Positions 6,124 to 47,979 of a stretch of 64,000 bases of DNA are shown here, piece after piece. Position 1 is the first letter of the stretch, and the number at the start of each line of letters is the position of its first letter. The stretch is taken from contig OX246743.1 of the NCBI GenBank assembly GCA_945910005.1, positions 4,372,018 through 4,436,017 on the forward strand, given 5' to 3'. The notes under the pieces were generated by a model. That model saw only the letters and a list, made by a program, of their open reading frames with translations, had not been told where the DNA came from and did not search any database. Made by a program: the position numbers and the translations under genes. The DNA is from Isoperla grammatica (lineage: Eukaryota > Arthropoda > Insecta > Plecoptera > Perlodidae).

Positions 6124-6270
6124 TTAGACGCCAGAGGTCTGTTTCACCCAGTCCCTCATGTTCGCAACGCGCGAGAAGATGCCAGGTTTTCTCACATGAG
6201 CGCAGCCACCGCCCCATGACACTACGCCCACCAGCTTCCCCCCACACAGCATGGGGCCACCAGAATCATC
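6124..6270 (-). pseudogene. gene A exon 6 (Ser195 exon, terminal copy)
   Basis: 147 nt including the TAA stop; begins right after TTTGCTTGCAG. It reads [19 protein letters not shown], a [15 protein letters not shown] helix, QTSGV and stop. It differs from B by Asp at 193 and by GGCAHVRK in the 217-223 loop. Confidence 0.75.
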
Positions 6271-8073
6271 CTGCAAGCAAACACAGACCATTAGACAGGC
6301 CACGCCCCACGACACTACCCCAACCAGCTTCCCCCCACACATCATGGGGCCACCAGAATCACCCTGCAAGCAAACACAGATCATTAGACAGCCCACGCCC
6401 CACGACACTACCCCCACCAGCTTCCCCCCACACAGCATGGGGCCACCAGAATCATCCTGCAAGCAAACACAGATCATTAGACAGGCCACGCTTCACGACA
6501 CTACCGCCACCAGCTTCCCCCCACACAGCATGAGGCCACCAGAATCATCCTGCAAGCAAACACAGACCATTAGACAGCCCACGCCCCACGACACTACCCC
6601 CACCAGCTTCCCCCCACACAGCATGGGGCCACCAGAATCACCCTGCAAGCAAACACAGACCATTAGACAGGCCACGCCCCACGACACTACCCCCACCAGC
6701 TTCCCCCCACACAGCATGGGGCCACCAGAATCACCCTGCAAGCAAACACAGACCATTAGACAGGCCACGCCCCACGACACTACGCCCACCAGCTTCCCCC
6801 CACACAGCATGGGGCCACCAGAATCATCCTGCAAGCAAACACAGACCATTAGACAAGGCCACGCCCCACGACACTACCCCCACCAGCTTCCCCCCACACA
6901 GCATGGGGCCACCAGAATCACCCTGCAAGCAAACACAGACCATTAGACAGGCCACGCCCCACGACACTACCCCCACCAGCGTCCCCCCACACAGCATGGG
7001 GCCACCAGAATCATCCTGCAAGCAAACACAGACCATTAGACAGGCCACGCCCCACGACACTACCCCCACCAGCTTCCCCCCACACAGCATGGGGCCACCA
7101 GAATCATCCTGCAAGCAAACACAGACCATTAGACAGGCCACGCCCCACGACACTACCCCCACCAGCTTCCCCCCACACAGCATGGGGCCACCAGAATCAC
7201 CCTGCAAACAAACACAGACCATTAGACAGGCCACGCCTTACGACACTACCCCCACCAGCTTCCCCCCACACAGCATGGGGCCACCAGAATCATCCTGCAA
7301 GCAAACACAGACCATTAGACAGGTCACGCCCCACGACACTACCCCCACCAGCTTCCCTCCACACAGCATGGGGCCACCAGAATCATCCTGCAAGCAAACA
7401 CAGACCATTAGACAGGTCACGCCCCACGACACTACCCCCACCAGCTTCCCTCCACACAGCATGGGGCCACCAGAATCACCCTGCAAGCAAACACAGACCA
7501 TTAGACAGGCCACGCCCCACGACACTACCCCAACCAGCTTCCCCCCACACAGCATGGGGCCACCAGAATCACCCTGCAAGCAAACACAGACCATTAGACA
7601 GGCCACGCCCCACGACACTACCCCCACCAGCTTCCCCCCACACAGCATGGGGCCACCAGAATCATCCTGCAAGCAAACACAGACCATTAGACAGGCCACG
7701 CTCCACGACACTACCCCCACCAGCTTCCCCCCACACAGCATGGGGCCACCAGAATCACCCTGCAAGCAAACACAGACCATTAGACAGGCCACGCCCCACG
7801 ACACTACCCCCACCAAGTCCCCCCACACAGCATGGGGCCACCAGAATCACCCTGCAAGCAAACACAGACCATTAGACAGGCCACGCCCCACGACACTACC
7901 CCCACCAGCTTCCCCCCACACAACATGGGGCCACCAGAATCACCCTGCAAGCAATCACAGACCATTAGACAGGCCACGCCCCACGACACTACCCCCACCA
8001 GCTTTCCCCCACACAGCATGGGGCCACCAGAATCACCCTGCAAGCAAACACAGACCATTAGACCGTCGGGTTA
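6271..8073 (-). repeat. 93-bp array of exon 6 acceptor plus exon start, about 20 units
   Basis: Each unit has about 30 bp of intron end (GGTCTGTGTTTGCTTGCAG) followed by about 60 bp of exon 6 coding for GDSGGP or DDSGGP, then [15 protein letters not shown]. Every unit therefore holds a complete 3' splice site and the catalytic serine codon. 93 is a multiple of three and most units contain no stop, so the minus strand is open for long stretches. By eye about 11 units encode GDSGGP and about 9 DDSGGP. Copy B has six or seven units at 35883-36376. Confidence 0.92.
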
Positions 8074-8450
8074 GATGAAATAAATAAAATAAATTCACAT
8101 TTAGAGTCTACCCACTCAGTAGCTAAACTGATTAGCAGTAGGGGACTTTAATTTAAAGTGAGCGATAACCAATCAACGATTGATTTTTTATATACGAAAC
8201 ATATGAATCAGTGATTGGACAGTGCGAACACCTGCGGATAAATGCCAGTATCAACAAGGCCGATTCAGAACAACTTTGAATTTATTGAGTGCTTCGTTGC
8301 TAGGACGGCTCCAAAGTCACCCTTTACTTATTCCTAAGCCAAGAAGTAATGGAATTGAATCCACATTAGAAGGTAAAAATTCTTCCTGAAGCGGGGTGAA
8401 CCCGGGACCTTCTGCATTGGAGGCAGGGATGCTAACCACTGAACCAACAA
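8074..8450 (-). mobile_element. tRNA-derived SINE in intron 5 of gene A
   Basis: Read on the minus strand from about 8450, a tRNA-like head carries an A box (TGGTTCAGTGG), an anticodon-loop-like CTCCAAT within a CTGC/GCAG stem, and a B box (GGTTCACCC). About 300 bp of unrelated body follows, ending in a TATTTTATTTATTT tail. Copy B lacks the segment: there GACCGTCGGGTT runs almost directly into AGGAGGTTCAGG. It is therefore a post-duplication insertion. Confidence 0.65.
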
Positions 8451-8544
8451 GTTCAGGAGGTTCAGGATCGAAACCCGAAATTCCGTTCGTGAATGTTTTA
8501 CCGTCTGAAATGAGTGAACAAATTGTATAGGCCCTACGTTATTA

Positions 8545-8843
8545 TACAAGGTCGAGTCAAGATGGCGACTCGCAGTGTACGCGCGCTCGGAGTGCTCCGT
8601 CTGATTATATTGTTTATAGTAGTTAAAACTGCAGTTTCTGCGTGTGTTCAAGCAAGCAGTGATCAGAAACCATGTGTTTTCTTTGTGCGAAGTGTGTTTG
8701 GGCTGAAAAGCTTTTTCGGTCCGTGCAAATGTGTGATTTATAGTTACACAATGTGCGTATCTAATTTATTTATTTATCGTATGGAAGCAACAGCTAAGAT
8801 TCAACAAAGTACAATATACATATAAAGTTATCATAAATATAAA
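8545..8843 (+). mobile_element. probable 5' part of the 2A-bearing LINE
   Basis: Lies between the empty-site junction and the minus-strand LINE. It begins GTCGAGTCAAGATGGCGAC, resembling the promoter/start region of non-LTR elements, and has an open frame from ATG 8562 with a hydrophobic start (LRLIILFIVV). I infer it to be the 5' end of the element that resumes at about 11895; the last 50 bp (TTTATG-like motifs on the minus strand) are probably the 3' tail of the inserted LINE. Confidence 0.45.
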
Positions 8844-11800
8844 TCATAAACATAAATCTAAGCCGGCCAACCAGGCCAGCGCGTCAGGTGTCGCTCTGTG
8901 GATCTCAGACCAATCCCCCTGGAAAGAGCGCAGGCGGCAATCCCTCACAATGTGGTTGATGGTCTGGCGAGGTTCGCCACAGTCACAGGCGCTGGATGGG
9001 ATCGCGCCCCATTTGAACAGGGAGTCTGCGCACCGGCCATGATTGGTTCTGATGCGGTTTAGTCTGGTCCACAGGTGTCTAGGAAGATCAAAGCCTGGAA
9101 CGGGAGTCGTTGGGTCTACAATTGGCGAGTTTGGTGCAAATTCCGACCACATTCTTTTCCACTCCATAGCACTGTCAAAGTTAGATTCTTGAAGTTTGGC
9201 AGCTTGTCTCAAAGATGGATTCCGCGACTTCAAGCGACCGCGGTACATTATGGCAGCATCTTCATGAATAGGCAAATTGTGTTTTTTGCATATTTTGTCG
9301 TATTCTCTGAGCAGCGCTTTTGAGCGCCTTAATGATGGTGGGGTGATATTGCTCAGGACAGGTAGCCATTGGGTCGGCGTTGATCTGAGTGTTCCGGAAA
9401 TCGTCCGCATTGTAATATTGAGCTGGGTATCTATAATCCGAGTATGCGTGCTTTCCAGCCAGACCGGTGCACAGTACTCTGCTGACGAGTACACCAGGCC
9501 AAGGGCAGCAGTGCGCAATGTAGCAGGCGAGGCTCCCCATGTAGTCGAAGCAAGTTTGTGAAGTAGGTTATTTCTTGTTTTAAGCTTGGCTGCGCAGTTA
9601 TGCAGATGCTGTTTAAACGTGAGAGATCTGTCCAGCGTTATTCCGAGATACTTTGGATGAAAGTTATGTTGCAGTACAGCACCATTGAAAACTACTTGAA
9701 GCGGGACGTGGGCTATTTTGTTGTTCAGATGAAACCATGCTGACTCCGTCTTACTGAGGCTGGGAGTGAGTCTCCAATTTTTGAAGTAAGCACTCAGGCC
9801 TTCAAGGTCTTGTGTAAGAACTTCTTCAGCAACGTGCATGTCCTTGTGCTGGAAGGTCAAGGCTAGGTCGTCTGCATACTGGAACTTTCTAGACTTTGTC
9901 TCCGGCATGTCGTGTATATAGAGGTTGAACATCAACGGGGCGAGAACGGATCCTTGTGGTAACCCGTTATTGAGTTGTCTCTGCTTACTTTTAGCCTCGT
10001 CCATGAAGACTTCAAAGGTGCGATTACTCAGCATATTATTGATGAGTCTGCTTATTCTTTTGCAGGGCACAACTTTGAGGAGTTTGTAGATTAGGCCCGT
10101 GCGCCACACTGTATCGTACGCCGCAGTTAGGTCCACAAATACTGCAGCTGTTTTAAGCTTTTTCTCAAAACCAGCTTCAATGTGTGTTGTTAAGGACATG
10201 ACTTGGTCTGTGCAGCTGCGTCCTTGGCGAAATCCGGCCTGCTCTACGGGGATGACTTCATTTACTGCATGCTCAATTCTGTTATAGATAAGCCGTTCCA
10301 GAACCTTGTAGCAACTGCTCAAGAGTGCAATTGGGCGATAGCTTTCCGCTATGTCAGCTGGTTTGCCAGGCTTGAGAATTGCTAGGATCTTCGATTTCCT
10401 GAATTCCCTGGGGTAACTTCCAGATATCAAAATGTCGCTGTAAAACTTACAGAGCCACCTTTTGGTGTTCTTCCCACAGGCCTTCAGGAATTCGGGGTGG
10501 ATTCCATCAGGGCCGGCTGCCTTCCCAGCTTTAGTTCTTGATATGGCTGCTTCTAGCTCAAGCATTGTAAAATCTTTGCTAAATTCTGATGAGTCAGGAG
10601 TGGTGGATCTTAAGTCTTTGAGTGATCTTCTTATCGTCCTCGTGAATTCCTTGTCGGCCTTAGCCTTGGAGGTTTCAACTATCCGGCGCGCTACCGCCTC
10701 TGGGTTGATTTTGGGCAGATGTGATGTAGTCACATTAGCGCCACCAAGTTTACGTAGGAGGCTCCAAGCTTTCCTACTTGAATGGGTGAAATCTAAGTTG
10801 TTGGTCGTGTTTTTCCATTTGTCTCGGCGTGCCGTGTCCAGCGAATATAAAAGGTCCTCAGCTATTTCTGGGTCTCCAGACTGCAGGAATTCTTGGTATA
10901 GCCTGTCGCTCTCTTCACTCCACCCCGGAATGTATTCCTTACGGTAACCACGCGGGATGTGTCTCTTGGCAGTTGAGATGACGGCTCCAACAAATCTCGA
11001 GTAGTTCTGGGCAGATGGAGGGATCCAGCGGACGTTAAAGTCTAACTCTTTGGAGAATGAACCCCAGGCAGCTTTGTTGAAATTCCATCTAGGCCGCTGG
11101 ACAGAGTTTATCAGCGGGATTTTTATACCACTTTCTATCATAACGGGCCGGTGTTGGCTCCGGGGGAAGCTTTTGAGAACTCTTCTGGACACGTGCATAT
11201 TATGTCGCTCGGTGTCACTGGTAGTTACAAAGCATAAATCAGGGTTGTAATCTCTCTGCCATCGTCCAGAGTGAAAGGTACCTTTATCTTTTGCGTCAAA
11301 TATCAGAACCATGTGGTATATATCAGCCCAGTTGGATAATCTGATGCCATTCTCGTCATTTGACTGATACCTCCACGAAGTATGGTGGCTGTTGAAATCG
11401 CCGGCATAAACCGCCGGGTGCTGGTAGACAGGGAGCGTTACCGCTGGCCAAGGAACGTTAGGTGGTTTATAGATGTTTACAATCTTAATATCAGCTACTT
11501 GAACAGTCACCAAGAAGACGTTGTCATCGCCACTCGTTTCAATGAGAATTGCATTCTCTATTGTCGACTTGACGTATGTGGCAACGCCGTACGCATGGTG
11601 GTTGACAGCCCCCACGAGGGTGTAGCCGACTATCTTGCCGCGAGCCATTAGGCTAGCGTCGTCTGGGCAGTGGGTCTCTTGGAGAAGGACAACGTCAGTG
11701 TTGTTTTCTTGTAGTACTCTGTGTAGATGGTCGCATTTAGCTCTGCTAATGCCTTCGATGTTTAGTTGGCAGATACGGACCGAGGGTCCAATATCTCTTG

Positions 11801-11894
11801 TCAGGTGGCGCTGAGAAGTGCCGGTCGGGAAGTTGGTATCCTGAGATTCTTGCATTGCGTATCTAATGTACTGGGTGGATATCAGTGCCACCAT
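8844..11894 (-). CDS. LINE endonuclease-reverse transcriptase, 1016 codons, intact
   Basis: Intact ORF of a non-LTR retrotransposon. The N-terminal third is an apurinic-type endonuclease: QLNIEG near residue 45, LLQETH near 75, VYAGDFNSHH near 165 (catalytic D and N), then an SQHRPV box near 245. The middle is a reverse transcriptase: SYRPIALLSS, QAGFRQGRS, VFVDLTAAYDTV (motif A Asp), GLPQGSVLAPLMFNLY and FQYADDLAL (YADD catalytic pair). The C terminus has a thumb region and a CDCGEP-x5-H-x4-C cluster, as in jockey-like elements. No ORF1 is seen, and the ORF start lies at the junction with the other LINE, so the copy may be 5'-truncated. It sits in intron 5 of gene A in gene-sense orientation. 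The catalytic motifs are intact, suggesting a young insertion. Clade assignment (jockey superfamily) is by resemblance. Confidence 0.9.
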   Translation of the reverse strand: MVALISTQYIRYAMQESQDTNFPTGTSQRHLTRDIGPSVRICQLNIEGISRAKCDHLHRVLQENNTDVVLLQETHCPDDASLMARGKIVGYTLVGAVNHHAYGVATYVKSTIENAILIETSGDDNVFLVTVQVADIKIVNIYKPPNVPWPAVTLPVYQHPAVYAGDFNSHHTSWRYQSNDENGIRLSNWADIYHMVLIFDAKDKGTFHSGRWQRDYNPDLCFVTTSDTERHNMHVSRRVLKSFPRSQHRPVMIESGIKIPLINSVQRPRWNFNKAAWGSFSKELDFNVRWIPPSAQNYSRFVGAVISTAKRHIPRGYRKEYIPGWSEESDRLYQEFLQSGDPEIAEDLLYSLDTARRDKWKNTTNNLDFTHSSRKAWSLLRKLGGANVTTSHLPKINPEAVARRIVETSKAKADKEFTRTIRRSLKDLRSTTPDSSEFSKDFTMLELEAAISRTKAGKAAGPDGIHPEFLKACGKNTKRWLCKFYSDILISGSYPREFRKSKILAILKPGKPADIAESYRPIALLSSCYKVLERLIYNRIEHAVNEVIPVEQAGFRQGRSCTDQVMSLTTHIEAGFEKKLKTAAVFVDLTAAYDTVWRTGLIYKLLKVVPCKRISRLINNMLSNRTFEVFMDEAKSKQRQLNNGLPQGSVLAPLMFNLYIHDMPETKSRKFQYADDLALTFQHKDMHVAEEVLTQDLEGLSAYFKNWRLTPSLSKTESAWFHLNNKIAHVPLQVVFNGAVLQHNFHPKYLGITLDRSLTFKQHLHNCAAKLKTRNNLLHKLASTTWGASPATLRTAALGLVYSSAEYCAPVWLESTHTRIIDTQLNITMRTISGTLRSTPTQWLPVLSNITPPSLRRSKALLREYDKICKKHNLPIHEDAAIMYRGRLKSRNPSLRQAAKLQESNFDSAMEWKRMWSEFAPNSPIVDPTTPVPGFDLPRHLWTRLNRIRTNHGRCADSLFKWGAIPSSACDCGEPRQTINHIVRDCRLRSFQGDWSEIHRATPDALAWLAGLDLCL

Positions 11895-11963
11895 GGTAAA
11901 CTAAATCATCAATCAACCTCAAGTCGAAGCCTTAATCTTCCTGTGGGACTTAACACATCATTA

Positions 11964-12014
11964 ATTTTATTGCTTATTGCAATGTGTGGAGATGTTCAAT
12001 TAAATCCCGGACCT
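11964..12014 (+). other. 2A-like ribosome-skipping motif
   Basis: The frame reads a hydrophobic LILLLIA, then MCGDVQLNPGP. The GDVxxNPGP core is the 2A signature at which ribosomes skip the Gly-Pro bond. 2A-like sequences at the N terminus of non-LTR retrotransposon proteins are known from other animals. Skipping activity is not shown here. Confidence 0.75.
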
Positions 12015-12986
12015 TCGCAGTCTTTTACGCTGTGCTATATGAACTCACGAGGGATATCAGGCAGCAGTAAATTGAGTGACTTTAACATGCACTTCGCAGA
12101 CAATAAAACTTACGATATAATCTGTGTTACGGAAACGTGGTTTTCTGACAAACTATTTGACGGTGAAGTCTTAAATGAGCAATATGTGGTACATAGGCGG
12201 GATCGTGGGAGCATCCCTCACTTGCGTACTAAAAAGGAGGAGGGGTCATGATTGCTGTATCAGGGGAGTTGCAGTGAGACGTAGTGGATGTTTTGAAACT
12301 GAGTGTGAGATCATTTGGTTGGAGGTCACAGTGAACCAGAGCACGCGTGTTTACGTTGGGTGTGTTTACCTACCCCCCTCCCCAACGGTTCAACTGTTGG
12401 ATGAGCTGCATACATCTGTCACGTGTTCAGTCGGCTCTACGTCACAATGACAAGATAGTGTTGTGTGGTGACTTCAATCTCCCGGCGATTACGTGGTCGC
12501 GTGGCCTCGGCTCTCCTGTGCGAGGTCTCAACCCTATTCTGGCTACAATGAGTCAGACTAATCTCATGTTTTTGGAGATGGTTACGGAGTTTAACCTTCG
12601 TCAGTTCAATCCGTTTACAACATGTAACAACCATGCGCTCGACCTTATTTTTGTAAACAGTGATGATTTGCTTGTGGACGTGTCTATAGGTCAGTCACCC
12701 GTGGCAACCGATCATACGCCCCTCTTGTGCTCTTTATCACTCCCGGCATTCAGTGGATTTGCCAAAATTCCACCCAGGACCATATTCAATTGGAATAGGG
12801 CTGACCTTGTCAAGATCAAAGCTGCGCTGCAACAGTGTAATTGGGGACTTATGGTTACCACTGAGCACGTGAATGCGTGCTGTGACGTATTTTATGACTT
12901 GTTTATGAAAGTTATTAGTGAAGTAGTACCGCAGGTTAAAGTGAACCCGAACAAGTATCCTGTATGGTATGACAGAGATGTAATTG

Positions 12987-13506
12987 ACTTGTTGTTCGCG
13001 CCATTTAGTCGTCGCTGGTGATATGTATTTTCTCGGTGTTGGTTCACCTGTATATTTATTTCATGTTTCGTTTTTCGGCCAATCACGTCATGTCTTACAG
13101 TTTTCCCGTTGTCAGCACGCAGCTTATCTCTTATCTAGTTTAGTAGTGTCCCAGTCTCCGACCTCGTCGGTCACGTCTGTAGTGTTCCAGTCTCCGACCT
13201 CGTCGGTCACGTTCAGTTTCCCGCTCTCAGTTTTTCTCTCTCGTGCGTTCCCGGACTACAACGACAACTTCTACGCCGCTGTCCTGGGTTCGATCGCCTT
13301 CCAGGCATTTTCATCTTTCCTTCTTTTCTCTTCTAAACTCGAGTTTCCTTCTTCTATCTCTTTCTCACGACGGCCTTTTTCCGCCCGTCGCTGTCATCTA
13401 CGTTTCGTCACCTTTCAAACATCATTGGGGTAAGTCTACACAAAAATATATACAGTCCACTAAAAAACTCCTCGGAGTGAGCACCCCGGCTCAAACACTT
13501 GTTGTT
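12987..13506. mobile_element. 500-bp insertion with 10-bp target duplication, inside the LINE
   Basis: ACTTGTTGTT occurs at 12987-12996 and 13497-13506; between them lie 500 bp that interrupt the LINE frame just after VIDLL. Without them the flanking codons join in frame (DLLLSKN, then AHKKWK). The insert is pyrimidine-rich, holds a duplicated 36-bp block (CCAGTCTCCGACCTCGTCGG twice, near 13150 and 13190) and has no obvious terminal inverted repeat. It looks like a non-autonomous retroposon of unknown class. Confidence 0.7.
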
Positions 13507-15523: not shown

Positions 15524-15565
<42 letters not shown>

Positions 15566-15745
15566 TATTACTATTTTTTTTTTATTGTTGCAATACATAC
15601 AAGCTCGAGCCTGGCGTTTACAACGTGTACTGACATAAATGTCTAGCATTTCTCTGGGCTTACCTTATAAAACTCAACTGGTAACTAATTAACTAATTGT
15701 TCATATTATTTTTGGTCTACTGCTGCCTTATCGTGGTGGGCAGGT

Positions 15746-15966
15746 AAGTGTGCTTTGTTGATCTCGAGAGCTACGTCGGCGGAAGCGTATGCTTCTGGTG
15801 GGCAACCTTAGATGGACAGGTCGAGGGGGAAAAAGCCAGACGAAAGGCAGTCTACTCCCACTTATTTTCGATTCCTATGACGACCACGGCGATGGCAATG
15901 GATCTGATCCGGCCGACGTCATATGACCTTGGTGTCGGGTACGTTGTAAACACCAAATACCAATAA
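15746..15966 (+). repeat. dispersed repeat, copy 2
   Basis: Closely matches 38164-38392, which is its paralogous position in copy B, and more distantly 2735-2915 on the minus strand. It ends GTAAACACCAAATACCAAT. A short open frame spans it, but the frame is not conserved in the oldest copy, so coding is unlikely. Confidence 0.6.
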
Positions 15967-16434: not shown

Positions 16435-16501
16435 AGATGATGGGCGGTGACCAATCACAGCGCTGTTGTGCCTGATATCAAAGACAGCGTCTCATGCGTA
16501 C

Positions 16502-16648: not shown

Positions 16649-16679
16649 CTGAAAACAAACATTGCTTCAAGTATAGACA

Positions 16680-19600
16680 GACACAATGAGTCTGGTCCAC
16701 CACGGAGACAGAGACAGTGAGCCTGGTCCACCACAGGGACAGAGACAGTGATTCTGCTCCACCACGGGGACAGAGACAGTGAGCCTGGTCCACCACAGGG
16801 ACAGAGACAGTGATTCTGCTCCACCAAGGGGACAGAGACAGTGAGTCTGGTCCACCACGGGGACCGAGACAGTGAGCCTGGTCCACCACAGGGACAGAGA
16901 CAGTGATTCTGCTCCACCACGGGGACAGAGACAGTGAGTCTGGTCCACCACGGGGACAGAGACAGTGAGTCTGGTCCACCATGGGGACAGAGACAGTGAG
17001 TCTGGTCCACCACGGGGACAGAGACAGTGACCTGGTCCACCACGGGGACAGAGACAGTGATTCTGCTCCACCACGGGGACAGAGACAGTGAGTCTGGTCC
17101 ACCACGGGGACAGAGACAGTGAGTCTGGTCCACCACGGGGACAGAGACAGTGAGTCTGGTCCACCACGGGGACAGAGACAGTGAGTCTGGTCCACCATGG
17201 GGACAGAGACAGTGAGTCTGGTCCACCACGGGGACAAAGACAGTGATTCTGCTCCACCACGGGGACAGAGACAGTGAGTCTGGTCCACCATGGGGACAGA
17301 GACAGTGACCCTGGTCCACCACGGGGACAGAGACAGTGAGTCTGGTCCACCATGGGGACAGAGACAGTGAGTCTGGTCCACCACGGGGACAGGGACAGTG
17401 ACCTGGTCCACCACGGGGACAGAGACAGTGAGCCTGGTCCACCACGGGGACAGAGACAGTGAGTCTGGTAGACCACGGGGACAGAGACAGTGACCTGGTC
17501 CACCACGGGGACAGAGACAGTGAGCCTGGTCCACCACGGGGACAGAGACAGTGAGTCTGGTCCACCACAGGGACAAAGACAGTGATTCTGCTCCACCACG
17601 GGGACAGAGACAGTGAGTCTGGTCCACCATGGGGACAGAGACAGTGAGTCTGGTCCACCATGGGGACAGAGACAGTGAGTCTGGTCCACCATGGGGACAA
17701 AGACAGTGAGTCTGGTCCACCACGGGGACAGAGACAGTGACCTGGTCCACCACGGGGACAGAGACAGTGAGCCTGGTCCACCACGGGGACAGAGACAGTG
17801 AGTCTGGTCCACCACGGGGACAGAGACAGTGACCTGGTCCACCACGGGGACAGAGACAGTGAGCCTGGTCCACCACGGGGACAGAGACAGTGAGTCTGGT
17901 CCACCACAGGGACAGAGACAGTGATTCTGCTCCACCACGAGGACAGAGACAGTGAGTCTGGTCCACCATGGGGACAGAGACAGTGAGCCTGGTCCACCAC
18001 GGGGACAGAGACAGTGAGTCTGGTCCACCACGGGGACAGAGACAGTGAGTCTGGTCCACCATGGGGACAGAGACAGTGAGTCTGGTCCACCACGGGGACA
18101 GAGACAGTGATTCTGCTCCACCACGGGGACAGAGACAGTGAGTCTGGTCCACCATGGGGACAGAGACAGTGAGTCTGGTCCACCATGGGGACAGAGACAG
18201 TGAGTCTGGTCCACCACGGGGACAGAGACAGTGACCTGGTCCACCACGGGGACAGAGACAGTGAGCCTGGTCCACCACGGGGACAGGGACAGTGAGCCTA
18301 GTCCACCACGGGGACAGAGACAGTGAGCCTGGTACACCACAGGGACAGAGACAGTGAGCCTGGTACACCACGGGGACAGGGACAGTGAGCCTGGTCCACC
18401 ACGGGGACAGAGACAGTGAGCCTGGTCCACCACGGGGACAGGGACAGTGAGCCTGGTACACCACGGGGACAGAGACAGTGAGTCTGGTCCACCACGGGGA
18501 CAGCCACATGGAGTCTGGTCCACCACGGGGACAGGGACAGTGAGCTTGGTACACCACGGGGACAGAGACAGTAAGTCTGGTCCACCACGGGGACAGGGAC
18601 AGTGAGCCTGGTCCACCACGGGGACAGAGACAGTGAGCCTGGTCCACCACGGGGACAAAGACAGTGAGCCTAGTCCACCACGTGGACAGAGACAGTGAGC
18701 CTGGTCCACCACGGGACAAGGACAGTGAGCCTGGTCCACCACGGGGACAAGGACAGTGAGTCTGGTCCACCACGAGGCCAGAGACAGTGAGTCTGGTCCA
18801 CCACGGGGACAGAGACAGTGAGCCTGGTCCACCACGGGGACAGAGACAGTGAGCCTGGTCCACCACGGGGACAGAGACAGTGAGTCTGGTCCACCACGGG
18901 GACAGAGACAGTGAGTCAGGTCCACCACGGGGACAGAGACATGGAGTCTGGTCCACCACGGGGACAGGGACAGTGAGCCTGGTACACCACGGGGACAGAG
19001 ACAGTGAGTCTGGTCAACCATGGGGACAGAGACAGTGAGTCTGGTCCACTACGGGGACAGAGACAGTGAGTCTGGTCCTCCACGGGGACAGAGACAGTGA
19101 GTCTGGTCAACCATGGGGACAGAGACAGTGAGTCTGGTCCACCACGGGGACAGAGACAGTGAGTCTGGTCCACCACGGGGACAGAGACAGTGACCTGGTC
19201 CACCACGGGGACAGAGACAGTGAGCCTGGTCCACCACGGGGACAGAGACAGTGACCTGGTCCACCACGGGGACAGAGACAGTGAGCCTGGTCCACCACGG
19301 GGACAGAGACAGTGAGTCTGGTCCACCACAGGGACAGAGACAGTGATTCTGCTCCACCACGAGGACAGAGACAGTGAGTCTGGTCCACCATGGGGACAGA
19401 GACAATGAGCCTGGTCCACCACGGGGACAGAGACAGTGAGTCTGGTCCACCACGGGGACAGAGACAGTGAGTCTGGTCCACCATGGGGACAGAGACAGTG
19501 AGTCTGGTCCACCACGGGGACAGAGACAGTGATTCTGCTCCACCACGGGGACAGAGACAGTGAGTCTGGTCCACCATGGGGACAGAGACAGTGAGTCTGG

Positions 19601-20888
19601 TCCACCACGGGGACAGAGACAGTGACCTGGTCCAACACGGGGACAGAGACAGTGAGCCTGGTCCACCACGGGGACAGGGACAGTGAGCCTAGTCCACCAC
19701 GGGGACAGAGACAGTGAGCCTGGTACACCACAGGGACAGAGACAGTGAGCCTAATCCACCACGGGGACAGGGACAGTGAGCCTGGTCCACCACGGGGACA
19801 GAGACAGTGAGCCTGGTCCACCACGGGGACAGGGACAGTGAGCCTGGTACACCACGGGGACAGAGACAGTGAGTCTGGTCCACCACGGGGACAGCCACAT
19901 GGAGTCTGGTCCACCACGGGGACAGGGACAGTGAGCTTGGTACACCACGGGGACAGAGACAGTAAGTCTGGTCCACCACGGGGACAGGGACAGTGAGCCT
20001 GGTCCACCACGGGGACAGAGACAGTGAGCCTGGTCCACCACGGGGACAAAGACAGTGAGCCTAGTCCACCACGTGGACAGAGACAGTGAGCCTGGTCCAC
20101 CACGGGACAAGGACAGTGAGCCTGGTCCACCACGGGGACAAGGACAGTGAGTCTGGTCCACCACGAGGACAGAGACAGTGAGTCTGGTCCACCACGGGGA
20201 CAGAGACAGTGAGCCTGGTCCACCACGGGGACAGAGACAGTGAGTCTGGTCCACCACGGGGACAGAGACAGTGAGTCTGGTCCACCACGGGGACAGAGAC
20301 ATGGAGTCTGGTCCACCACGGGGACAGGGACAGTGAGCCTGGTACACCACGGGGACAGAGACAGTGAGTCTGGTCCACCACGGGGACAGAGACATGGAGT
20401 CTGGTCCACCACGAGGACAAGGACAGTGAGCCTGGTCCACCACGGGGACAGAGACAGTGAGTCTGGTCAACCATGGGGACAGAGACAGTGAGTCTGGTCC
20501 ACTACGGGGACAGAGACAGTAAGTCTGGTCCTCCACGGGGACAAAGACAGTGAGTCTGGTCAACCATGGGGACAGAGACAGTGAGTCTGGTCCACCACGG
20601 GGACAGAGACAGTGAGTCTGGTCCACCACGGGGACAGAGACAGTGAGTCTGGTCAACCATGGGGACAGAGACAGTGAGTCTGGTCCACCACGGGGACAGA
20701 GACAGTGAGTCTAGTCCACCACGGGGACAGAGACAGTGAGCCTGCTCCACCACGGGGACAGAGACAGTGAGTCTGGTCCACCATGGGGACAGAGACAGTG
20801 AGTCTGGTCCACCACGGGGACAGAGACAGTGAGTCTGGTCCACCACGGGGACAGAGACAGTGAGCCTGGTCCACCACGGGGACAGCAC
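16680..20888 (-). repeat. 31-bp minisatellite in intron 4, about 135 units, exon 5-like
   Basis: The unit on the minus strand is CTGTCTCTGTCCCCGTGG followed by TGGACCAGACTCA. It corresponds to the exon 5 codons for [11 protein letters not shown] of gene B, where the 31-bp segment is bounded by CTGTC on both sides. Variants are 30-31 bp (GACC against GAGTC/GAGCC), with G/A and C/T interchanges. A section of about 0.7 kb is repeated with an offset of 1391 bp (for example 18298-18588 against 19689-19979), so the array has higher-order duplication. The long ORFs through it (up to 790 codons) are an effect of the repeat. Confidence 0.92.
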
Positions 20889-23391
20889 AGGGTCAGCTAG
20901 ATACTCACCTGTTTGGTGCCCCAGCCAGTGACGTCACAGACAGTGCCGGTCTCGACCGCTTCGTCCTGCGTGGGGAGGGTGACGGGGTAGTGGGGGGGGG
21001 GGGGGGGCAGCGAGATACTCACCTGTTTGGTGCCCCAGCCAGTGACGTCACAGACAGTGCCGGTCTCGACCGCTTCGTCCTGCGTGGGGAGGGTGACGGG
21101 GTAGCGGGGGGGGGGGGGGGCAGCTAGATACTCACCTGTTTGGTGCCCCAGCCAGTGACGTCACAGACAGTGCCGGTCTCGACCGCTTCGTCCTGCGTGG
21201 GGAGGGTGACGGGGTAGTGGGGGGGGGGGGGGCAGCTAGATACTCACCTGTTTGGTGCCCCAGCCAGTGACGTCACAGACAGTGCCGGTCTCGACCGCTT
21301 CGTCCTGCGTGGGGAGGGTGACGGGGGTAGTGGGGGGGGGGGGGCAGCTAGATACTCACCTGTTTGGTGCCCCAGCCAGTGACGTCACAGACAGTGCCGG
21401 TCCCGACCGCTTCGTCCTGCGTGGGGAGGGCGACGGGGTAGTGGGGGGGGGGGGCAGCTAGATACTCACCTGTTTGGTGCCCCAGCCAGTGACGTCACAG
21501 ACAGTGCCGGTCTCGACCGCTTCGTCCTGCGTGGGGAGGGTGACGGGGTAGTGGGGGGGGGGGGGGGCAGCTAGATACTCACCTGTTTGGTGCCCCAGCC
21601 AGTGACGTCACAGACAGTGCCGGTCTCGACCGCTTCGTCCTGCGTGGGGAGGGTGACGGGGTAGTGGGGGGGGGGGGGGGCAGCTAGATACTCACCTGTT
21701 TGGTGCCCCAGCCAGTGACGTCACAGACAGTGCCGGTCTCGACCGCTTCGTCCTGCGTGGGGAGGGTGACGGGGTAGTGGGGGGGGGGGGGGCAGCTAGA
21801 TACTCACCTGTTTGGTGCCCCAGCCAGTGACGTCACAGACAGTGCCGGTCTCGACCGCTTCGTCCTGCGTGGGGAGGGTGACGGGGTAGTGGGGGGGGGG
21901 GGGGCAGCTAGATACTCATCTGTTTGGTGCCCCAGCCAGTGACGTCACAGACAGTGCCGGTCTCGACCGCTTCGTCCTGCGTGGGGAGGGTGACGGGGTA
22001 GTGGGGGGGGGGGGGCAGCTAGATACTCACCTGTTTGGTGCCCCAGCCAGTGACGTCACAGACAGTGCCGGTCTCGACCGCTTCGTCCTGCGTGGGGAGG
22101 GTGACGGGGTAGTGGGGGGGGGGGGGGCAGCTAGATACTCACCTGTTTGGTGCCCCAGCCAGTGACGTCACAGACAGTGCCGGTCTCGACCGCTTCGTCC
22201 TGCGTGGGGAGGGTGACGGGGTAGTGGGGGGGGGGGGGCAGCTAGATACTCACCTGTTTGGTGCCCCAGCCAGTGACGTCACAGACAGTGCCGGTCTCGA
22301 CCGCTTCGTCCTGGGTGGGGAGGGTGACGGGGTAGTGGGGGGGGGGGGGGGCAGCTAGATACTCACCTGTTTGGTGCCCCAGCCAGTGACGTCACAGACA
22401 GTGCCGGTCTCGACCGCTTCGTCCTGCGTGGGGAGGGTGACGGGGTAGTGGGGGGGGGGGGGGCAGCTAGATACTCACCTGTTTGGTGCCCCAGCCAGTG
22501 ACGTCACAGACAGTGCCGGTCTCGACCGCTTCGTCCTGCGTGGGGAGGGTGACGGGGTAGTGGGGGGGGGGGGGGGCAGCTAGATACTCACCACGGTGGT
22601 GCCCCAGCCAGTGACGTCACAGACAGTGCCGGTCTCGACCGCTTCACCCTGGGTGGGGAGGGTGACGGTGTAGTGGGGGGGGGGGGGGGCAGCTAGATAC
22701 TCACCTGTTTGGTGCCCCAGCCAGTGACGTCACAGACAGTGCCGGTCTCGACCGCTTCGTCCTGCGTGGGGAGGGTGACGGGGTAGTGGGGGGGGGGGGG
22801 GGGGGGGGCAGCTAGATACTCACCTGTTTGGTGCCCCAGCCAGTGACGTCACAGACAGTGCCGGTCTCGACCGCTTCGTCCTGCGTGGGGAGGGTGACGG
22901 GGTAGTGGGGGGGGGGGGGGGCAGCTAGATACTCACCTGTTTGGTGCCCCAGCCAGTGACGTCACAGACAGTGCCGGTCTCGACCGCTTCGTCCTGGGTG
23001 GGGAGGGTGACGGGGGTAGTGGAGGGGGGGGGGGGGGCAGCTAGATACTCACCTGTTTGGTGCCCCAGCCAGTGACGTCACAGACAGTGCCGGTCTCGAC
23101 CGCTTCGTCCTGCGTGGGGAGGGTGACGGGTAGTGGGGGGGGGGGGGGGCAGCTAGATACTCACCTGTTTGGTGCCCCAGCCAGTGACGTCACAGACAGT
23201 GCCGGTCTCGACCGCTTCGTCCTGCGTGGGGAGGGTGACGGGGTAGTGGGGGGGGGGGGGGCAGCTAGATACTCACCTGTTTGGTGCCCCAGCCAGTGAC
23301 GTCACAGACAGTGCCGGTCTCGACCGCTTCACCCTGGGTGGGGAGGGTGACGGGGGGCGACGCCGACTCCAAAGACAAATGGCGTCGATAC
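20889..23391 (-). repeat. array of exon 4 end plus donor, about 112 bp, 22 copies including the exon
   Basis: Each unit on the minus strand holds GACGAAGCGGTCGAGACC, the codons for CDVTGWGT, the end ACAG, the donor GTGAGTATCTAGCTG, then a run of 10-21 C and ACTACCCCGTCACCCTCC leading to CCACGCAG. Unit length varies from about 110 to 119 bp because of the C-run. The 22nd copy (23277-23391) is joined to the true exon 4 acceptor. Copy B has three copies. Confidence 0.92.
23277..23391 (-). pseudogene. gene A exon 4 with 1-bp insertion
   Basis: Begins after CTCAG as GTATCGACGCC ([13 protein letters not shown]) and ends CAG before GTGAGT. It is 115 nt against 114 nt in gene B: the plus strand has six G at about 23352-23357 where B has five. 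The frame is lost before CDVTGWG. Confidence 0.75.
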
Positions 23392-23475
23392 CTGAGATAG
23401 ACACAGACGACAATAATTACTGAGCATCTCAAAACGCCTAATTCACATCTGTCAAACCCAGATGACAGGTCCCCT

Positions 23476-24150
23476 CACAGGCTGATACCACCCTTTACAG
23501 GCTGCTTCTAGTGCTTACAGGCTGCTACCGGCGCTTACAGGCTTCTTCCGGCCCTCACAGGCTGCTACCGGCGCTTACAGGCTGCTACCAGCGCTTACAG
23601 GCTGCTACCGGCCCTCACAGGCTGATACCACCCTTTACAGGCTGCTTCCGCCTTTTACAGGTTGCTACCAGCCCTTACAGACTGCTCCCGGCCCTCACAG
23701 GCTGATACCACCCTTTACAAGCTGCTACCGGTGCTTACAGGCTGCTACCGGCGCTTACAAGCTGCCACCGGTGCTTACATGCTGCTACCGGCGCTTACAG
23801 GCTGCTCCCGGCGCTTACAGACTGTTACCGGCGCTTACAGGCTGCTACCGGCGCTTACAGGGTAATCCCGGCGCTTACAGACTGCTACCGGCGCTTACAT
23901 GCTGCTACCGGCGCTTACAGACTGCTCCCGGCCCTCACAGGCTGATACCACCCTTTACAGGCTGCTACCGGTGCTTACAGGCTGCTACCGGCGCTTACAG
24001 ACTGCTACCGGCGCTTACAGGCTGCTCCCGGCGCTTACAGACTGCTACTGGCGCTTACAGGCTGCTACCGGCCCTTACGGGCAGATACTGGCCCTCGCAC
24101 GCTGTGACCGACCTTTACAAGCTTCTACTGGCCCTTACAGGCAGCCATGA
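23476..24150 (-). repeat. 20-bp minisatellite in intron 3, about 33 units
   Basis: The unit on the plus strand is CTTACAGGCTGCTACCGGCG with many single-base variants. Copy B has about six units at 40270-40390. On the minus strand the unit resembles the GGCCGGTAGCAGCCTG motif at the end of the neighbouring 151-bp unit, so the two arrays may share an origin. Confidence 0.88.
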
Positions 24151-24179
24151 GGGAGGCGGATAGTGACAAGAGGGGGTGA

Positions 24180-25640
24180 ACGTACCCTAAGCAGCGCCAG
24201 GTCGTAGTCCCATGTCACGGTGCTGTACCGGCTGTGGAAGATGACTTGCTGCACTGAGTGTACACTCCCCCCCGCCCCTAGCAGGCTGCTACCGGCCCTG
24301 AGGGAGGCGGATAGTTACAAGAGAGTGAGAACCTACCCTAAGCAGCGCCAGGTCGTAGTCCCATGTCACGGTGCTGTACTGGCTGTGCAAGATGACTTGC
24401 TGCACTGGGTGTACACTCCCCCCCGCCCCTAGCAGGCTGCTGCCGGCCCTGAGGGAGGCGGATAGTGGCAAGAGAGTGAGAACGTACCCTAAGCAGCGCC
24501 AGGTCGTAGTCCCATGTCACGGTGCTGTACTGGCTGTGGAAGATGACTTGTTGCACTGAGTGTACACTTCCCCCCGTCCCTAGCAGGCTGCTGCCGGCCC
24601 TGAGGGAGGCGGATAGTGGCAAGAGAGTGAGAACGTACCCTAAGCAGCGCCAGGTCGTAGTCGTATGTCGCGGGGTTGAACTGGCTGTGGAAGATGACTT
24701 GTTGCACTGAGTGTACACTCCCCCCCGCCCCTAGCAGGCTGCTGCCGGCCCTGAGGGAGGCGGATAGTGACAAGAGGGGGAGAACGTACCCTAAGCAGCG
24801 CCAGGTCGTAGTCCCATGTCACGGTGCTGTACTGGCTGTGGAAGATGACTTGTTGCACTGATTGTACACTTCCCCCCGCCCCTAGCAGGCTGCTGCCGGC
24901 CCTGAGGGAGGCGGATAGTGACAAGAGGGGGAGAACGTACCCTAAGCAGCGCCAGGTCGTAGTCCCATGTCACGGTGCTGTACTGGCTGTGCAAGATGAC
25001 TTGCTGCACTGGGTGTACACTCCCCCCCGCCCCTAGCAGGCTGCTGCCGGCCCTGAGGGAGGCGGATAGTGACAAGAGGGGGAGAACCTACCCTAAGCAG
25101 CGCCAGGTCGTAGTCCCATGTCACGGTGCTGTACTGGCTGTGGAAGATGACTTGTTGCACTGAGTGTACACTTCCCCCCGCCCCTAGCAGGCTGCTGCCG
25201 GCCCTGAGGGTCGCGGATAGTTACAAGAGAGTGAGAACGTACCCTAAGCAGCGCCAGGTCGTAGTCCCATGTCACGGTGCTGTACTGGTTGTGGAAGATG
25301 ACTTGCTGCACTGAGTGTACACTTCCCCCCGCCCCTAGCAGGCTGCTACCGGCCCTGAGGGAGGCGGATAGTGACAAGAGGGGGAGAACCTACCCTAAGC
25401 AGCGCCAGGTCGTAGTCCAATGTCACGGTGCTGTACTGGCTGTGGAAGATGACTTGTTGCACTGAGTGTACACTTCCCCCCGCCCCTAGCAGGCTGCTAC
25501 CGGCCCTGAGGGAGGCGGATAGTGACAAGAGGGGGAGAACCTACCCTAAGCAGCGCCAGGTCGTAGTCCAATGTCACGGTGCTGTACTGGCTGTGGAAGA
25601 TGACTTGTTGCACTGAGTGTACACTTCCCCCCGCCCCTAG
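24180..25640 (-). repeat. 151-bp array of exon 3 end plus donor, 10 copies including the exon
   Basis: Donor-side junctions recur every 151 bp (near 24183, 24334, 24485 and so on to 25541). Each unit on the minus strand has the last 112 nt of exon 3 ([30 protein letters not shown], so the Asp102 codon is included), a donor GTACGT or GTAGGT, and 39 bp of intron ending CCTCCCTCAG. The unit is bounded by CTCAGGGCCGG, present both inside exon 3 and 39 nt into the intron. Copy B has one copy only. Confidence 0.92.
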
Positions 25641-25769
25641 AAAGGTGCTGCCGGCCCTGAGAGTGATGTTGACGTAAGGGCCTAAGCTGCAGTGGGCGGC
25701 CGTGATGGCCCAGTGGGCGCTGATGATGGAAGCTCCGCAGAGTGGGAACCCATTGGACTCCAGCGACAG
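25545..25769 (-). pseudogene. gene A exon 3 (His57/Asp102)
   Basis: 225 nt (75 codons), phase 0 at both ends, after acceptor GTTTAG. It encodes [26 protein letters not shown] and DYDLALLR. Open throughout, with no defect of its own. Confidence 0.82.
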
Positions 25770-26699: not shown

Positions 26700-27490
26700 T
26701 TAAAGTATTACTAGAGTAGTGCCTCAGTGCTGTAAACCCAACTTGCCTGGTGTGGGTATTGTTCAATACTGGCTGAGTAGTACCTCAATTCTATACACCC
26801 AACTTGCCTGATATGGGTATTGTTCAATACTGACTGAGTAGTGCCTCAATACTGTACACCCAACTTGCCTGATATGGGTATTGTTCAATACTGAATGAGT
26901 AGTACCTCAATTCTATACACCCAACTTGCCTGATATGGGTATTGTTCAATACTGATTGAGTAGTACCTCAATACTTTACACCCAACTTGCCTGATATGGA
27001 TATTGTTCAATACCGACTGAGTAGTGCCTCAATACTTTACACCCAACTTGCCTGATATGGATATTGTTCAATACTGACTGAGTAGTGCCTCAATACTATA
27101 CACCCAACTTGTCTGATATGGATATTGTTCAATACTGGCTGAGTAGTACCTCAATACTATACACCCAACTTGTCTGATATGGATATTGTTCAATACTGGC
27201 TGAGAAGTGCCTCAATACTATACACCCAACTTGCCTGGTATGGGTATTGTTCAATACTGACTGAGTAGTGCCTCAATACTATACACCCAACTTGCCTGAT
27301 ATGGATATTGTTCAATACTGGCTGAGTAGTACCTCAATACTATACACCCAACTTGTCTGATATGGATATTGTTCAATACTGGCTGAGTAGTACCTCAATA
27401 CTATACACCCAACTTGTCTGATATGGATATTGTTCAATACTGGCTGAGAAGTGCCTCAATACTATACACCAACTTGCCTGATATGGGTAT
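26700..27490 (-). repeat. 61-bp array of exon 2 end plus GC donor, about 13 copies including the exon
   Basis: The period is exactly 61 bp. The unit on the minus strand has TCAGTATTGAACAATACC, CATATCAG (VSIEQYPYQ), then GCAAGTTGGGTGTATAG and TATTGAGGCACTACTCAG. Several units have CAGACAAGT rather than CAGGCAAGT, which removes the GC donor. Copy B has a single unexpanded copy at 44166-44245. Confidence 0.92.
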
Positions 27491-27551
27491 TGTTCAATAC
27501 TGACGGGCCTCCCATAAACGATTCTTCCATCGAAGGTTTTCGAGAAATCAC
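27478..27551 (-). pseudogene. gene A exon 2 (activation site)
   Basis: 74 nt; the acceptor CTCTTTTAG precedes GTGATTTCTCG. It encodes [24 protein letters not shown]. The predicted donor is CAG then GCAAGT (GC-type), which joins in phase 0 to LSLE of exon 3. Residue 18 is Tyr rather than Gly. Confidence 0.72.
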
Positions 27552-27720
27552 CTAAAAGAGAAACATAGTATTGTCCAAATTAACATTTTACCCGATTTCG
27601 TAAATAAATTGACAAATGTGTATGAATCTACGTTGTAGTATACTATATATTGATTTATTTTATTATAACTTGTAACTGTACTATATGTTTTTGGGTCTAA
27701 GATAAAGTTATAAGATACAA

Positions 27721-29340
27721 ACGTGCGTGTGTGTGCGTGAGTGTGCGTGAGCGTGCTGCGATATTACACTAACGTGCGTGAGTGTGCGTGAGCGTGTTGA
27801 GATATTACACTAACGTGCGTGAGTGTGCGTGAGCGTGTTGCGATATTACACTAACGTGCGTGAGTGTGCGTGAGCGTGTTGCGATATTACACTAACGTAC
27901 GTGAGTGTGCGTCAGCGTGTTGCGATATTACACTAACGTGCGTGAGTGTGCGTAAGCGTGTTGAGATATTACTCTAACGTGCGTGAGTGTGCGTGAGCGT
28001 GTTGCGATATTACACTAACGTACGTGAGTGTGCGTGAGCGTGCTGCGATATTACACTAACGTGCGTGAGTGTGCATAAGCGTGTTGCGATAATACACTAA
28101 CGTGCGTGAGTGTGCGTGAGCGTGTTGCGATATTACACTAACATGCGTGAGTGTGCGTGGGCGTGTAGCGATATTACACTAACGTACGTGAGTGTGCGTG
28201 AGCGTGTTGCGATATTAAACTAACGTGCGTGAGTGTGCGTGAGCGTGTTGTGATATTAAACTAACGTGCGTGAGTGTGCGTGAGCGTGTTGCGATATTGC
28301 ACTAAAGTGCGTGAGTGTGCGTGAGCGTGTTGAGATATTACACTAACGTGCGTGAGTGTGCGTGAGCGTGTTGCGATATTACACTAACGTGCGTGAGTGT
28401 GCGTGAGCGTGTTGCGATATTACACTAACGTGCGTGAGTGTGCGTGAGCGTGTTGCGATATTACACTAACGTGCGTGAGTGTGCGTGAGCGTGTTGAGAT
28501 ATTACACTAACGTACGTGAGTGTGCGTGAGCGTGTTGAGATATTACACTAACGTACGTGAGTGTGCGTGAGCGTGTTGCGATATTACACTAACGTGCGTG
28601 AGTGTGCGTGAGCGTGTTGCGATATTACACTAACGTACGTGAGTGTGCGTGAGCGTGTTGCGATATTACACTTACGTACGTGAGTGTGCGTGAGCGTGTT
28701 GCGATATTACACTTACGTACGTGAGTGTGCGTGAGCGTGTTGCGATATTACACTTACGTACGTGAGTGTGCGTGAGCGTGTTGCGATATTACACTAACGT
28801 GCGTGAGTGTGCGTGAGCGTGTTGCGATATTACACTTACGTACGTGAGTGCGCGTGAGCGTGTTGCGATATTGCACTTACGTACGTGAGTGTGCGTGAGC
28901 GTGTTGCGATATTACACTAACGTGCGTGAGTGTGCGTGAGCGTGTTGCGATATTACACTAACGTGCGTGAGCGTGTTGAGATATTACACTTACATGCGTG
29001 AGTGTGCGTGAGCGTGTTGCGATATTACACTAACAAGCGTGAGTGTGCGTGAGCGTGTTGCGATATTACACCAACGTGCGTGAGCGTGTTGAGATATTAC
29101 ACTTACATGCGTGAGTGTGCGTGAGCGTGTTGCGATATTACACTAACAAGCGTGAGTGTGCGTGAGCGTGTTGAGATATTACACTAACGTGCGTGAGTGT
29201 GCGTGAGCGTGTTGCGATATTACACTAACGTGCGTGAGCGTGTTGAGATATTACACTTACATGCGTGAGTGTGCGTGAGCGTGTTGCGATATTACACTAA
29301 CGTGCGTGAGTGTGCGTGAGCGTGTGGCATGTGTGCGTGA
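27721..29340 (-). repeat. 41-bp minisatellite in intron 1, about 38 units
   Basis: The unit on the plus strand is ACGTGCGTGAGTGTGCGTG, AGCGTGTTGCG, ATATTACACTA. A few short units lack the middle block (near 28965, 29075 and 29230). Copy B has about six units at 44778-45020. Unlike the other arrays in this gene, it shows no exon match. Confidence 0.92.
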
Positions 29341-29394
29341 GCGTATCTTGACTTTGAGTCACGCGCTCACCGCTACAATATACTCAGTACTCAC

Positions 29395-29440
29395 CCCAGC
29401 TGCCGGCGATCTGGCAAACGAGTAAGGCGAGTACAAACAT
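29395..29440 (-). pseudogene. gene A exon 1 (signal peptide)
   Basis: ATG at 29440. It encodes [15 protein letters not shown] plus one base, then donor GTGAGT. Hydrophobic core [15 protein letters not shown] box lies 56 bp upstream. Confidence 0.8.
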
Positions 29441-31640: not shown

Positions 31641-31648
31641 ATGTCGGC

Positions 31649-47968: not shown

Positions 47969-47979
47969 GCTTGCACTCG

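What the first reader, a model, noticed from the sequence alone, without database searches (positions are those of the whole stretch)
6124..29440. Minisatellites built from exon-intron junctions at nearly every splice site of one gene
In protease gene A, arrays in four of five introns are made of the gene's own exon edges: exon 2 end plus donor (61 bp x13), exon 3 end plus donor (151 bp x10), exon 4 end plus donor (about 112 bp x22), exon 5 coding (31 bp x135), exon 6 acceptor plus exon start (93 bp x20). Intron 1 has a further unrelated array. Minisatellites are common, but repeated, independent amplification of splice junctions within one gene is unusual and surrounds each true junction with many decoys. 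It looks like a locus- or genome-wide process rather than chance.
Basis: partly seen in the sequence, partly recalled or inferred. Interest (0 to 1): 0.93.

Follow-up and report, generated by a model that had tools for sequence, protein, structure and literature searches.

The report
Repeated splice junctions in insect genes
An insect digestive-enzyme gene carries long tandem arrays made of its own exon-intron borders, so real splice sites sit beside many copies; this resembles the 'mirages' described in amphioxus and is most likely ordinary repeat growth tolerated because the extra copies can be spliced out.

Summary
In trypsin gene A (minus strand, 6124-29440) arrays copy the exon 2, 3 and 4 donor borders and the exon 6 acceptor border; a 31-bp array copies exon 5 coding sequence without its border. 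Two additions: paralogue B (35736-45123) has five of A's seven arrays, with one full copy at the exon 2 and 3 borders; and an unrelated NRF-domain gene has 17 copies of its exon 2 acceptor border. Junction arrays exceed uniform placement (7 of 14 genic arrays, mean 1.1; 1 of 10,000 placements), but A and B are not independent, and trypsin exons are GC islands (59-61% against 37-42%), which explains much of the excess, not the AT-rich 61-bp unit. In A and the NRF gene 72 of 77 decoys keep their core dinucleotide. Real borders share variants with decoys, and exon 6 units are undifferentiated between A and B, so copies probably exchange. Such arrays are known in amphioxus ('mirages'); seven paper searches listed none in an insect. 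Best reading: tandem duplications that crossed a junction, tolerated because the exon-nearest site can still be used, then expanded. No RNA, reads or whole genome could be examined.

The parts
6124..29440 (-). Trypsin gene A, six exons (29440-29395, 27551-27478, 25769-25545, 23391-23277, 16648-16502, 6270-6124); as assembled the frame is broken in exon 4 (115 nt against 114 in gene B)
26714..27504 (-). 61-bp array x13: 27 nt of exon 2 end + GC donor + 34 nt of intron 2 in all; true donor in the exon-nearest copy (intron starts 27477); 9 of 13 copies keep GC, 4 have AC
24144..25661 (-). 151-bp array x10: 112 nt of exon 3 end + 39 nt of intron 3; true donor in the exon-nearest copy; GT kept in 10 of 10
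23477..24142 (-). 20-bp array x33 in intron 3, derived from exon 3 sequence through a partial 151-bp copy
   Evidence: best match 21/22, in the partial copy of gene B intron 3
20890..23355 (-). 112-bp array x22: exon 4 end + donor + intron 4 start; each unit also holds a CAG acceptor-like site, so each is a 57-nt, phase-0, stop-free potential exon; GT kept in 21 of 22
16676..20885 (-). 31-bp array x136 in intron 4, derived from exon 5 coding sequence, no splice junction in the unit
6205..8063 (-). 93-bp array x20: end of intron 5 + acceptor + exon 6 start; true acceptor in the last copy (exon 6 starts 6270); AG kept in 20 of 20
27733..29325 (-). 41-bp array x40 in intron 1, no match to the exons tested
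35736..45123 (-). Paralogous trypsin gene B (250 aa, PF00089), exons 45123-45078, 44299-44226, 40660-40436, 40024-39911, 39117-38971, 35882-35736
35815..36373 (-). Gene B 93-bp array x6 at exon 6 acceptor; AG kept in 6 of 6
39668..39989 (-). Gene B 112-bp array x3 at exon 4 donor; GT kept in 3 of 3
39142..39663 (-). Gene B 31-bp array x17
40273..40398 (-). Gene B 20-bp array x6
44773..45007 (-). Gene B 41-bp array, 5.7 copies, in intron 1
58290..62037 (+). 5' part of an NRF-domain gene (PF20146): exon 1 58290-58488, exon 2 61832-62037
60471..61886 (+). 83-bp array x17: end of intron 1 + acceptor + exon 2 start of the NRF-domain gene; AG kept in 17 of 17; true acceptor in the last copy; TACCA at both outer ends

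Best explanation
These are mirage-type minisatellites. A short tandem duplication, perhaps founded at short matching sequences, happened to span a splice junction. It did no harm because the spliceosome can keep using the copy next to the exon (first copy for donors, last copy for acceptors), so all further copies lie in the intron and are discarded. The unit then grew, probably by unequal exchange, which still passes variants between decoys and the real exon border and, in the exon 6 array, between the two paralogous genes. Junctions are over-represented mainly because repeat founders here are GC-rich, trypsin exons are GC islands in AT-rich introns, and founders wholly inside exons are removed by selection. 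Shown: the arrays, their anatomy, shared variants, the paralogue comparison. Position of the true site follows from the gene models. Inferred: splice choice, founding and exchange mechanism, selection.
For: By the gene models the true site is in the exon-side end copy in 5 of 5 junction arrays of A and the NRF gene and 2 of 2 in B. Gene B has introns 2 and 3 with one full copy of the border, so these introns do not depend on arrays. Decoys keep the core dinucleotide in 72 of 77 (A and NRF gene) and 7 of 7 (B); variable exon columns by codon position are 15 of 110, 20 of 110 and 23 of 112 (summed over five arrays, true copies included, not tested), with no strong codon pattern. Short matches at outer ends: TACCA (83 bp), CTCA (151 bp), TCA for the 61-bp unit using gene B's single copy as the unexpanded state. 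GC: trypsin exons 59-61%, introns 37-42%; among windows of GC at least 0.58, junction-spanning ones are 36, 46 and 66% (93, 112, 151 bp; gene A) and 44, 58 and 84% (gene B). Exon 6 units: between A and B 3.5%, within 3.6 and 2.8%, two identical unit types, against 9.0% substitutions in alignable non-array sequence. Amphioxus precedents with regular splicing reported (passages of PMC3087553 and PMC3902484).
Against: The 61-bp unit is 39% GC, so GC does not explain it (junction-spanning windows with GC at least 0.36: 6.6% in A, 12% in B). Conditioning on unit GC partly conditions on the outcome, since units are GC-rich partly because they are exonic; arrays without exon matches have GC 0.46 to 0.54. 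In the NRF gene only 27% of windows with GC at least 0.55 span a junction (20% at 0.46). No RNA evidence on splice choice. Matches of 3 to 5 bases at ends can be chance and had no control; gene A's own last 61-bp copy reads TCT where B reads TCA, and the 93-bp array shows no clear match. B may have lost copies rather than A gained them: its intron 3 holds a 28-nt partial second copy.
Confidence: 0.62

Rival explanations
1. A process that prefers splice junctions: something tied to transcription or splicing (for example breaks or R-loops at exon borders) duplicates junction DNA across this genome.
For: 7 of 14 genic arrays hold a junction in a terminal unit (mean 1.10; 1 of 10,000 placements); for A alone 4 of 7, 3.1e-4; an unrelated gene has one too; the AT-rich 61-bp unit is not explained by GC.
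Against: A and B share arrays, so distinct junctions are five; B alone gives 2 of 5, 0.04; GC-matched windows give 36-84% junction-spanning for the three GC-rich trypsin units; units contain intron, so spliced RNA is not the template; no genome-wide data.
Confidence: 0.16
2. The decoys have a role: extra cassette exons, splicing control, or a store of exon variants that can be copied into the coding exon of the protease.
For: All 22 exon 4 copies in A, the true one included, are 57-nt, phase-0, stop-free stretches between an acceptor-like CAG and a donor position (21 of 22 with GT). Gene A's real exon 3 border reads YSTVT as do 8 of 9 decoys, while one decoy (24750) keeps the gene B-like FNPAT; exon 6 of A starts DDSGG like 8 of 19 decoys.
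Against: No strong codon pattern in decoy variation; 3 of 20 exon 6 copies in A carry a stop in the exon frame, one of them after a 1-base deletion; a 151-bp unit used as an exon (112 nt) would shift the frame; gene A is itself frame-broken as assembled; the direction of exchange is not determined.
Confidence: 0.1
3. Assembly artefact: reads from a few real copies were stacked into long arrays.
For: Reads are not available, so copy numbers cannot be checked; C-runs of 12-21 bases are hard to sequence, and gene A's exon 4 frameshift lies in a C-run.
Against: Copies differ by their own variants, arrays recur in B with other numbers, and the NRF array is a separate case.
Confidence: 0.07
4. The introns themselves were born from the tandem duplications (intron gain by duplication of AGGT-bearing exon sequence).
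For: Exon 3 and exon 4 units carry AG and GT signals; intron gain by junction-crossing duplication is reported in potato (abstract of PMC4974935).
Against: Gene B has introns 2 and 3 with one full border copy; the arrays lie at one end of introns that hold other sequence.
Confidence: 0.05

Closest known systems
Amphioxus 'mirage' minisatellites (Adh3, troponin C, globins BflGb6 and BflGb9, PGBD5)
   Same: Tandem units crossing exon-intron borders at donor or acceptor ends, decoy AG/GT signals, units of 10-160 bp (passages of PMC3087553, PMC3902484).
   Different: Host is an insect by protein similarity, not a cephalochordate; four junctions plus an exon-derived array in one gene; shared with a paralogue; up to 22 junction copies. 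Splicing and instability not tested here.
Polyubiquitin-type arrays with dual-specific AGGT splice sites (PMC10809524, abstract and passages)
   Same: Tandem units each carrying splice signals.
   Different: There the units code and the sites are used; here copies look non-coding and no use is shown.
Intron gain by junction-crossing tandem duplication (potato RdRp, abstract of PMC4974935)
   Same: The duplicated segment crosses an intron-exon border.
   Different: Here copies are many, and introns 2 and 3 exist in gene B without an array.
Internal tandem repeats altering human paralogue structure (PMC2812944, listing only)
   Same: Tandem repeats inside genes of recent duplicates.
   Different: Only the start of the abstract was seen; no closer comparison made.
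Ordinary minisatellites
   Same: Unit sizes, local homogenisation, variant end copies.
   Different: Founders are exon borders of the gene itself.

Membership tests
Mirage minisatellites (as described in PMC3087553) | Tandem repeat unit crosses an exon-intron boundary | tested here: met
   5 distinct junctions (A: 4, NRF gene: 1) and 2 of A's again in gene B
Mirage minisatellites (as described in PMC3087553) | Many but not all repeats carry AG/GT signals | tested here: met
   72 of 77 decoys in A and NRF gene, 7 of 7 in B (GC counted as a donor for the 61-bp unit)
Mirage minisatellites (as described in PMC3087553) | Regular splicing of the mRNA is undisturbed | not testable with these tools
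   No RNA data
Mirage minisatellites (as described in PMC3087553) | Length instability, somatic in Adh3 | not testable with these tools
   One assembly; A and B differ in copy number (22 and 3, 20 and 6, 13 and 1, 10 and 1), but that is between paralogues
Mirage minisatellites (as described in PMC3087553) | Host is a cephalochordate (the taxon of the reported cases, not a structural criterion) | tested here: not met
   The ten best protein matches of gene B are insect trypsins at 46-55%; so mirage-like by structure, not an amphioxus mirage
Trypsin family (PF00089) | Pfam model match above its cut-off | tested here: met
   Gene B 209.5 bits, cut-off 20.6; gene A not scanned
Dual-specific splice-site arrays | Same site used as donor and acceptor | not testable with these tools
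   No RNA data

The most novel reading that the evidence does not exclude
In this insect, decoy exon borders act as a store that rewrites the coding exon: variants built up in non-coding copies are exchanged into the real exon border, within a gene and between paralogues, so that splice-junction arrays speed up change in digestive proteases; and the same process acts on many genes.
Probability: 0.13. Interest if true: 0.78.

Novelty: new member of a known kind. Interest (0 to 1): 0.52.

Why it matters
Junction arrays set a natural test of how the spliceosome picks one site among 10 to 22 near-identical ones: an exon-nearest rule, first in the transcript, or exon definition. The paralogue with one full copy at two of the borders gives a comparison for how a junction repeat begins or is lost. 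The arrays also offer a route by which exon sequence, and possibly new exons or introns, could arise. A second animal phylum would show that mirages are not a peculiarity of amphioxus.

Tried and rejected
Rejected: the 31-bp array as a junction array (its unit lies inside exon 5); the 41-, 69-, 82-, 50- and 16-bp units as derived from exons of the three genes modelled here (each below its shuffle maximum; genes not recognised were not tested); the 69-bp arrays as trypsin-gene arrays, since one lies in a reverse-transcriptase reading frame; introns 2 and 3 as products of arrays.

One search counted copies with a fuzzy pattern that missed many; its counts were dropped and replaced by a cyclic alignment. 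One search stopped on an error and was rerun as with the minimum overlap lowered from 40 to 30 columns. In one search gene B's exon 6 was first set one unit too far upstream; one search corrected it, since the last acceptor reads TTTCAG.

In the placement tests I used 19 arrays chosen from the 53 rows: overlapping rows merged, periods under 16 and arrays under about 2.5 copies dropped; two short 17-bp arrays (56042-56095, 56707-56773) and the (CTCA)n run beginning 13 bases into the NRF intron after exon 2 were also left out. Junctions were 23: ten each in A and B, three in the NRF gene.

Species: not identified. Among the 120 listed of 632 protein matches to trypsin B none exceeds 55%; matches to a retrotransposon protein in intron 5 are mostly unnamed, best 80% (120 of 258 listed). 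Pattern scans of genome contigs and viral contigs, one exact pattern each, found nothing. The 2002 amphioxus Adh paper is recalled; the identifier I tried was recalled too and is not held; what I say of it comes through PMC3087553. Passages on intron minisatellites in earthworm metallothionein genes (PMC12783039) did not show junction units.
Full report
What is there. The window holds two tandem trypsin genes on the minus strand and the start of an NRF-domain gene on the plus strand. Gene B encodes an intact 250-residue trypsin (PF00089, 7.3e-62); its ten best protein matches are insect trypsins at 46-55% identity (Anabrus simplex and Onthophagus taurus first). Gene A has the same six exons but one extra base in a C-run of exon 4, so as assembled its frame is broken there; this may be a dead gene or a sequencing error. 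The species is unknown.

The arrays. One search matched each unit to the exons of all three genes with 30 shuffles per test: the 61-, 151-, 112- and 93-bp units of gene A cross the exon 2, 3 and 4 donors and the exon 6 acceptor; the 31-bp unit comes from inside exon 5; the 20-bp unit comes from exon 3 sequence through a partial 151-bp copy; the 41-bp unit of intron 1 matches no exon above shuffles. The 83-bp unit of the NRF gene crosses its exon 2 acceptor. By the gene models and the unit-by-unit alignment the true site is in the copy next to the exon: the first for donors, the last for acceptors, 5 of 5 in A and the NRF gene, 2 of 2 in B.

Decoys. In gene A and the NRF gene the core dinucleotide is kept in 77 of 82 copies, true sites included: 9 of 13 (61 bp, GC donor), 10 of 10 (151 bp), 21 of 22 (112 bp), 20 of 20 (93 bp), 17 of 17 (83 bp), which leaves 72 of 77 decoys; in gene B 7 of 7 decoys. 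Four of the five losses are the same change, GC to AC, in the 61-bp array. Variable exon columns fall at codon positions 1, 2, 3 in 15 of 110, 20 of 110 and 23 of 112 (summed over the five arrays, true copies included, no test made): no strong codon pattern. I saw no sign that decoys are maintained or removed. All 22 exon 4 copies in A, the true one included, are stop-free 57-nt stretches in the right phase; whether any decoy is used is unknown.

Chance. Under uniform placement 7 of 19 arrays hold a junction in a terminal unit against a mean of 0.94 (14 of 10,000 rotations), and 7 of 14 genic arrays against 1.10 (1 of 10,000). A and B share arrays, so this overstates the evidence; A alone gives 4 of 7 (3.1e-4) and B alone 2 of 5 (0.04). 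Composition matters: trypsin exons have 59-61% GC and non-array introns 37-42%; among windows with GC of at least 0.58, 36, 46 and 66% cross a junction in gene A for 93, 112 and 151 bp, and 44, 58 and 84% in gene B. In the NRF gene (exons 55%, rest 37%) 27% of windows with GC of at least 0.55 do. The 61-bp unit (39% GC) is not explained this way: 6.6% in A, 12% in B. I therefore regard composition, plus the expected removal of exon-internal duplications, as covering much, not all, of the excess. The caveat is that conditioning on GC partly conditions on being exonic.

History. Gene B has the 112-, 93-, 31-, 20- and 41-bp arrays at lower copy number, one copy of the exon 2 border, and one full copy plus a 28-nt piece of the exon 3 unit. 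So the shared arrays probably predate the gene duplication, or passed between the genes, and the 61- and 151-bp arrays grew in A or shrank in B. The outer ends of the 83-bp array share TACCA and those of the 151-bp array in A share CTCA; for the 61-bp unit gene B's single copy has TCA at both places while gene A's last copy reads TCT; the 93-bp array shows no clear match. Matches this short had no control, so a microhomology-founded start is only suggested.

Exchange. The real border of exon 3 in A reads YSTVT as do 8 of 9 decoys, while decoy 24750 reads FNPAT as gene B does. The real exon 6 start of A reads DDSGGP; 8 of its 19 decoys start DDSGG (7 of them DDSGGP); gene B's real exon reads GDSGGP. 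Exon 6 units of A and B are not differentiated (between 3.5%, within 3.6 and 2.8%; 1052 of 2000 label shuffles as large; two identical unit types), although alignable non-array sequence, some exon included, differs by 9.0% (443 of 4937 aligned columns). The 20-bp units are likewise undifferentiated (1121 of 2000), while 112-, 31- and 41-bp units are differentiated (3, 0 and 2 of 2000); the 61- and 151-bp units could not be tested, B having one copy. So real exon borders seem to take part in array turnover; the direction is not determined.

Known kind. Amphioxus genes carry 'mirages', tandem duplications of exon-intron borders with decoy splice signals, length instability and, as far as reported, regular splicing (PMC3087553, passages of the abstract and of the section on intron evolution; PMC3902484, one passage). 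Related: tandem arrays with dual-specific splice sites in polyubiquitin (PMC10809524, abstract and passages), intron gain by junction-crossing duplication in potato (PMC4974935, abstract), and internal tandem repeats in human paralogues (PMC2812944, listing only). Seven searches of the paper library (capped listings) showed no such array in an insect; most subscription papers are not held there.

Mechanism offered. A junction-crossing duplication leaves the protein unchanged if the exon-nearest site is used; later copies are intronic and free to grow. Shown here: anatomy and variant sharing. Inferred: splice choice, founding at short matches, exchange by unequal crossing or conversion, selection against exon-internal founders. 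A junction-preferring process remains possible and needs the genome-wide count, which I could not run.

Noticed in passing
3802-5097 and 32644-33340 (+): A 69-bp (23-codon) array lies in frame at the end of a reverse-transcriptase reading frame (31598-33484, RVT_1 in its first part), and the same array occurs downstream of gene A: a minisatellite apparently carried by a retrotransposon or duplicated with the genes.
   Followed up: partly
8844-11900 (-) and 11766-15406 (+): Intron 5 of gene A holds an open 1018-residue endonuclease/reverse-transcriptase frame and, on the other strand, several frames one of which matches RVT_1; these account for much of its 10.2 kb against about 3 kb in gene B.
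   Followed up: partly
62050-62257 (+): A (CTCA)n run of about 52 units begins just inside the intron after NRF-gene exon 2, followed by a 16-bp array at 62379-62829.
   Followed up: no
46672-47971 and 48353-50425: 82-bp x16 and 50-bp x42 arrays upstream of gene B; they match no exon of the three genes modelled, but could be borders of genes not recognised.
   Followed up: partly
27478 and 44226 (-): The exon 2 donor of both trypsin genes reads CAG|GCAAGT, a GC donor (uncommon, from general knowledge), and it is the one present 13 times in gene A.
   Followed up: partly
23391-23277 (-): Gene A exon 4 carries one extra C in a C-run near the array boundary, breaking the frame as assembled.
   Followed up: no
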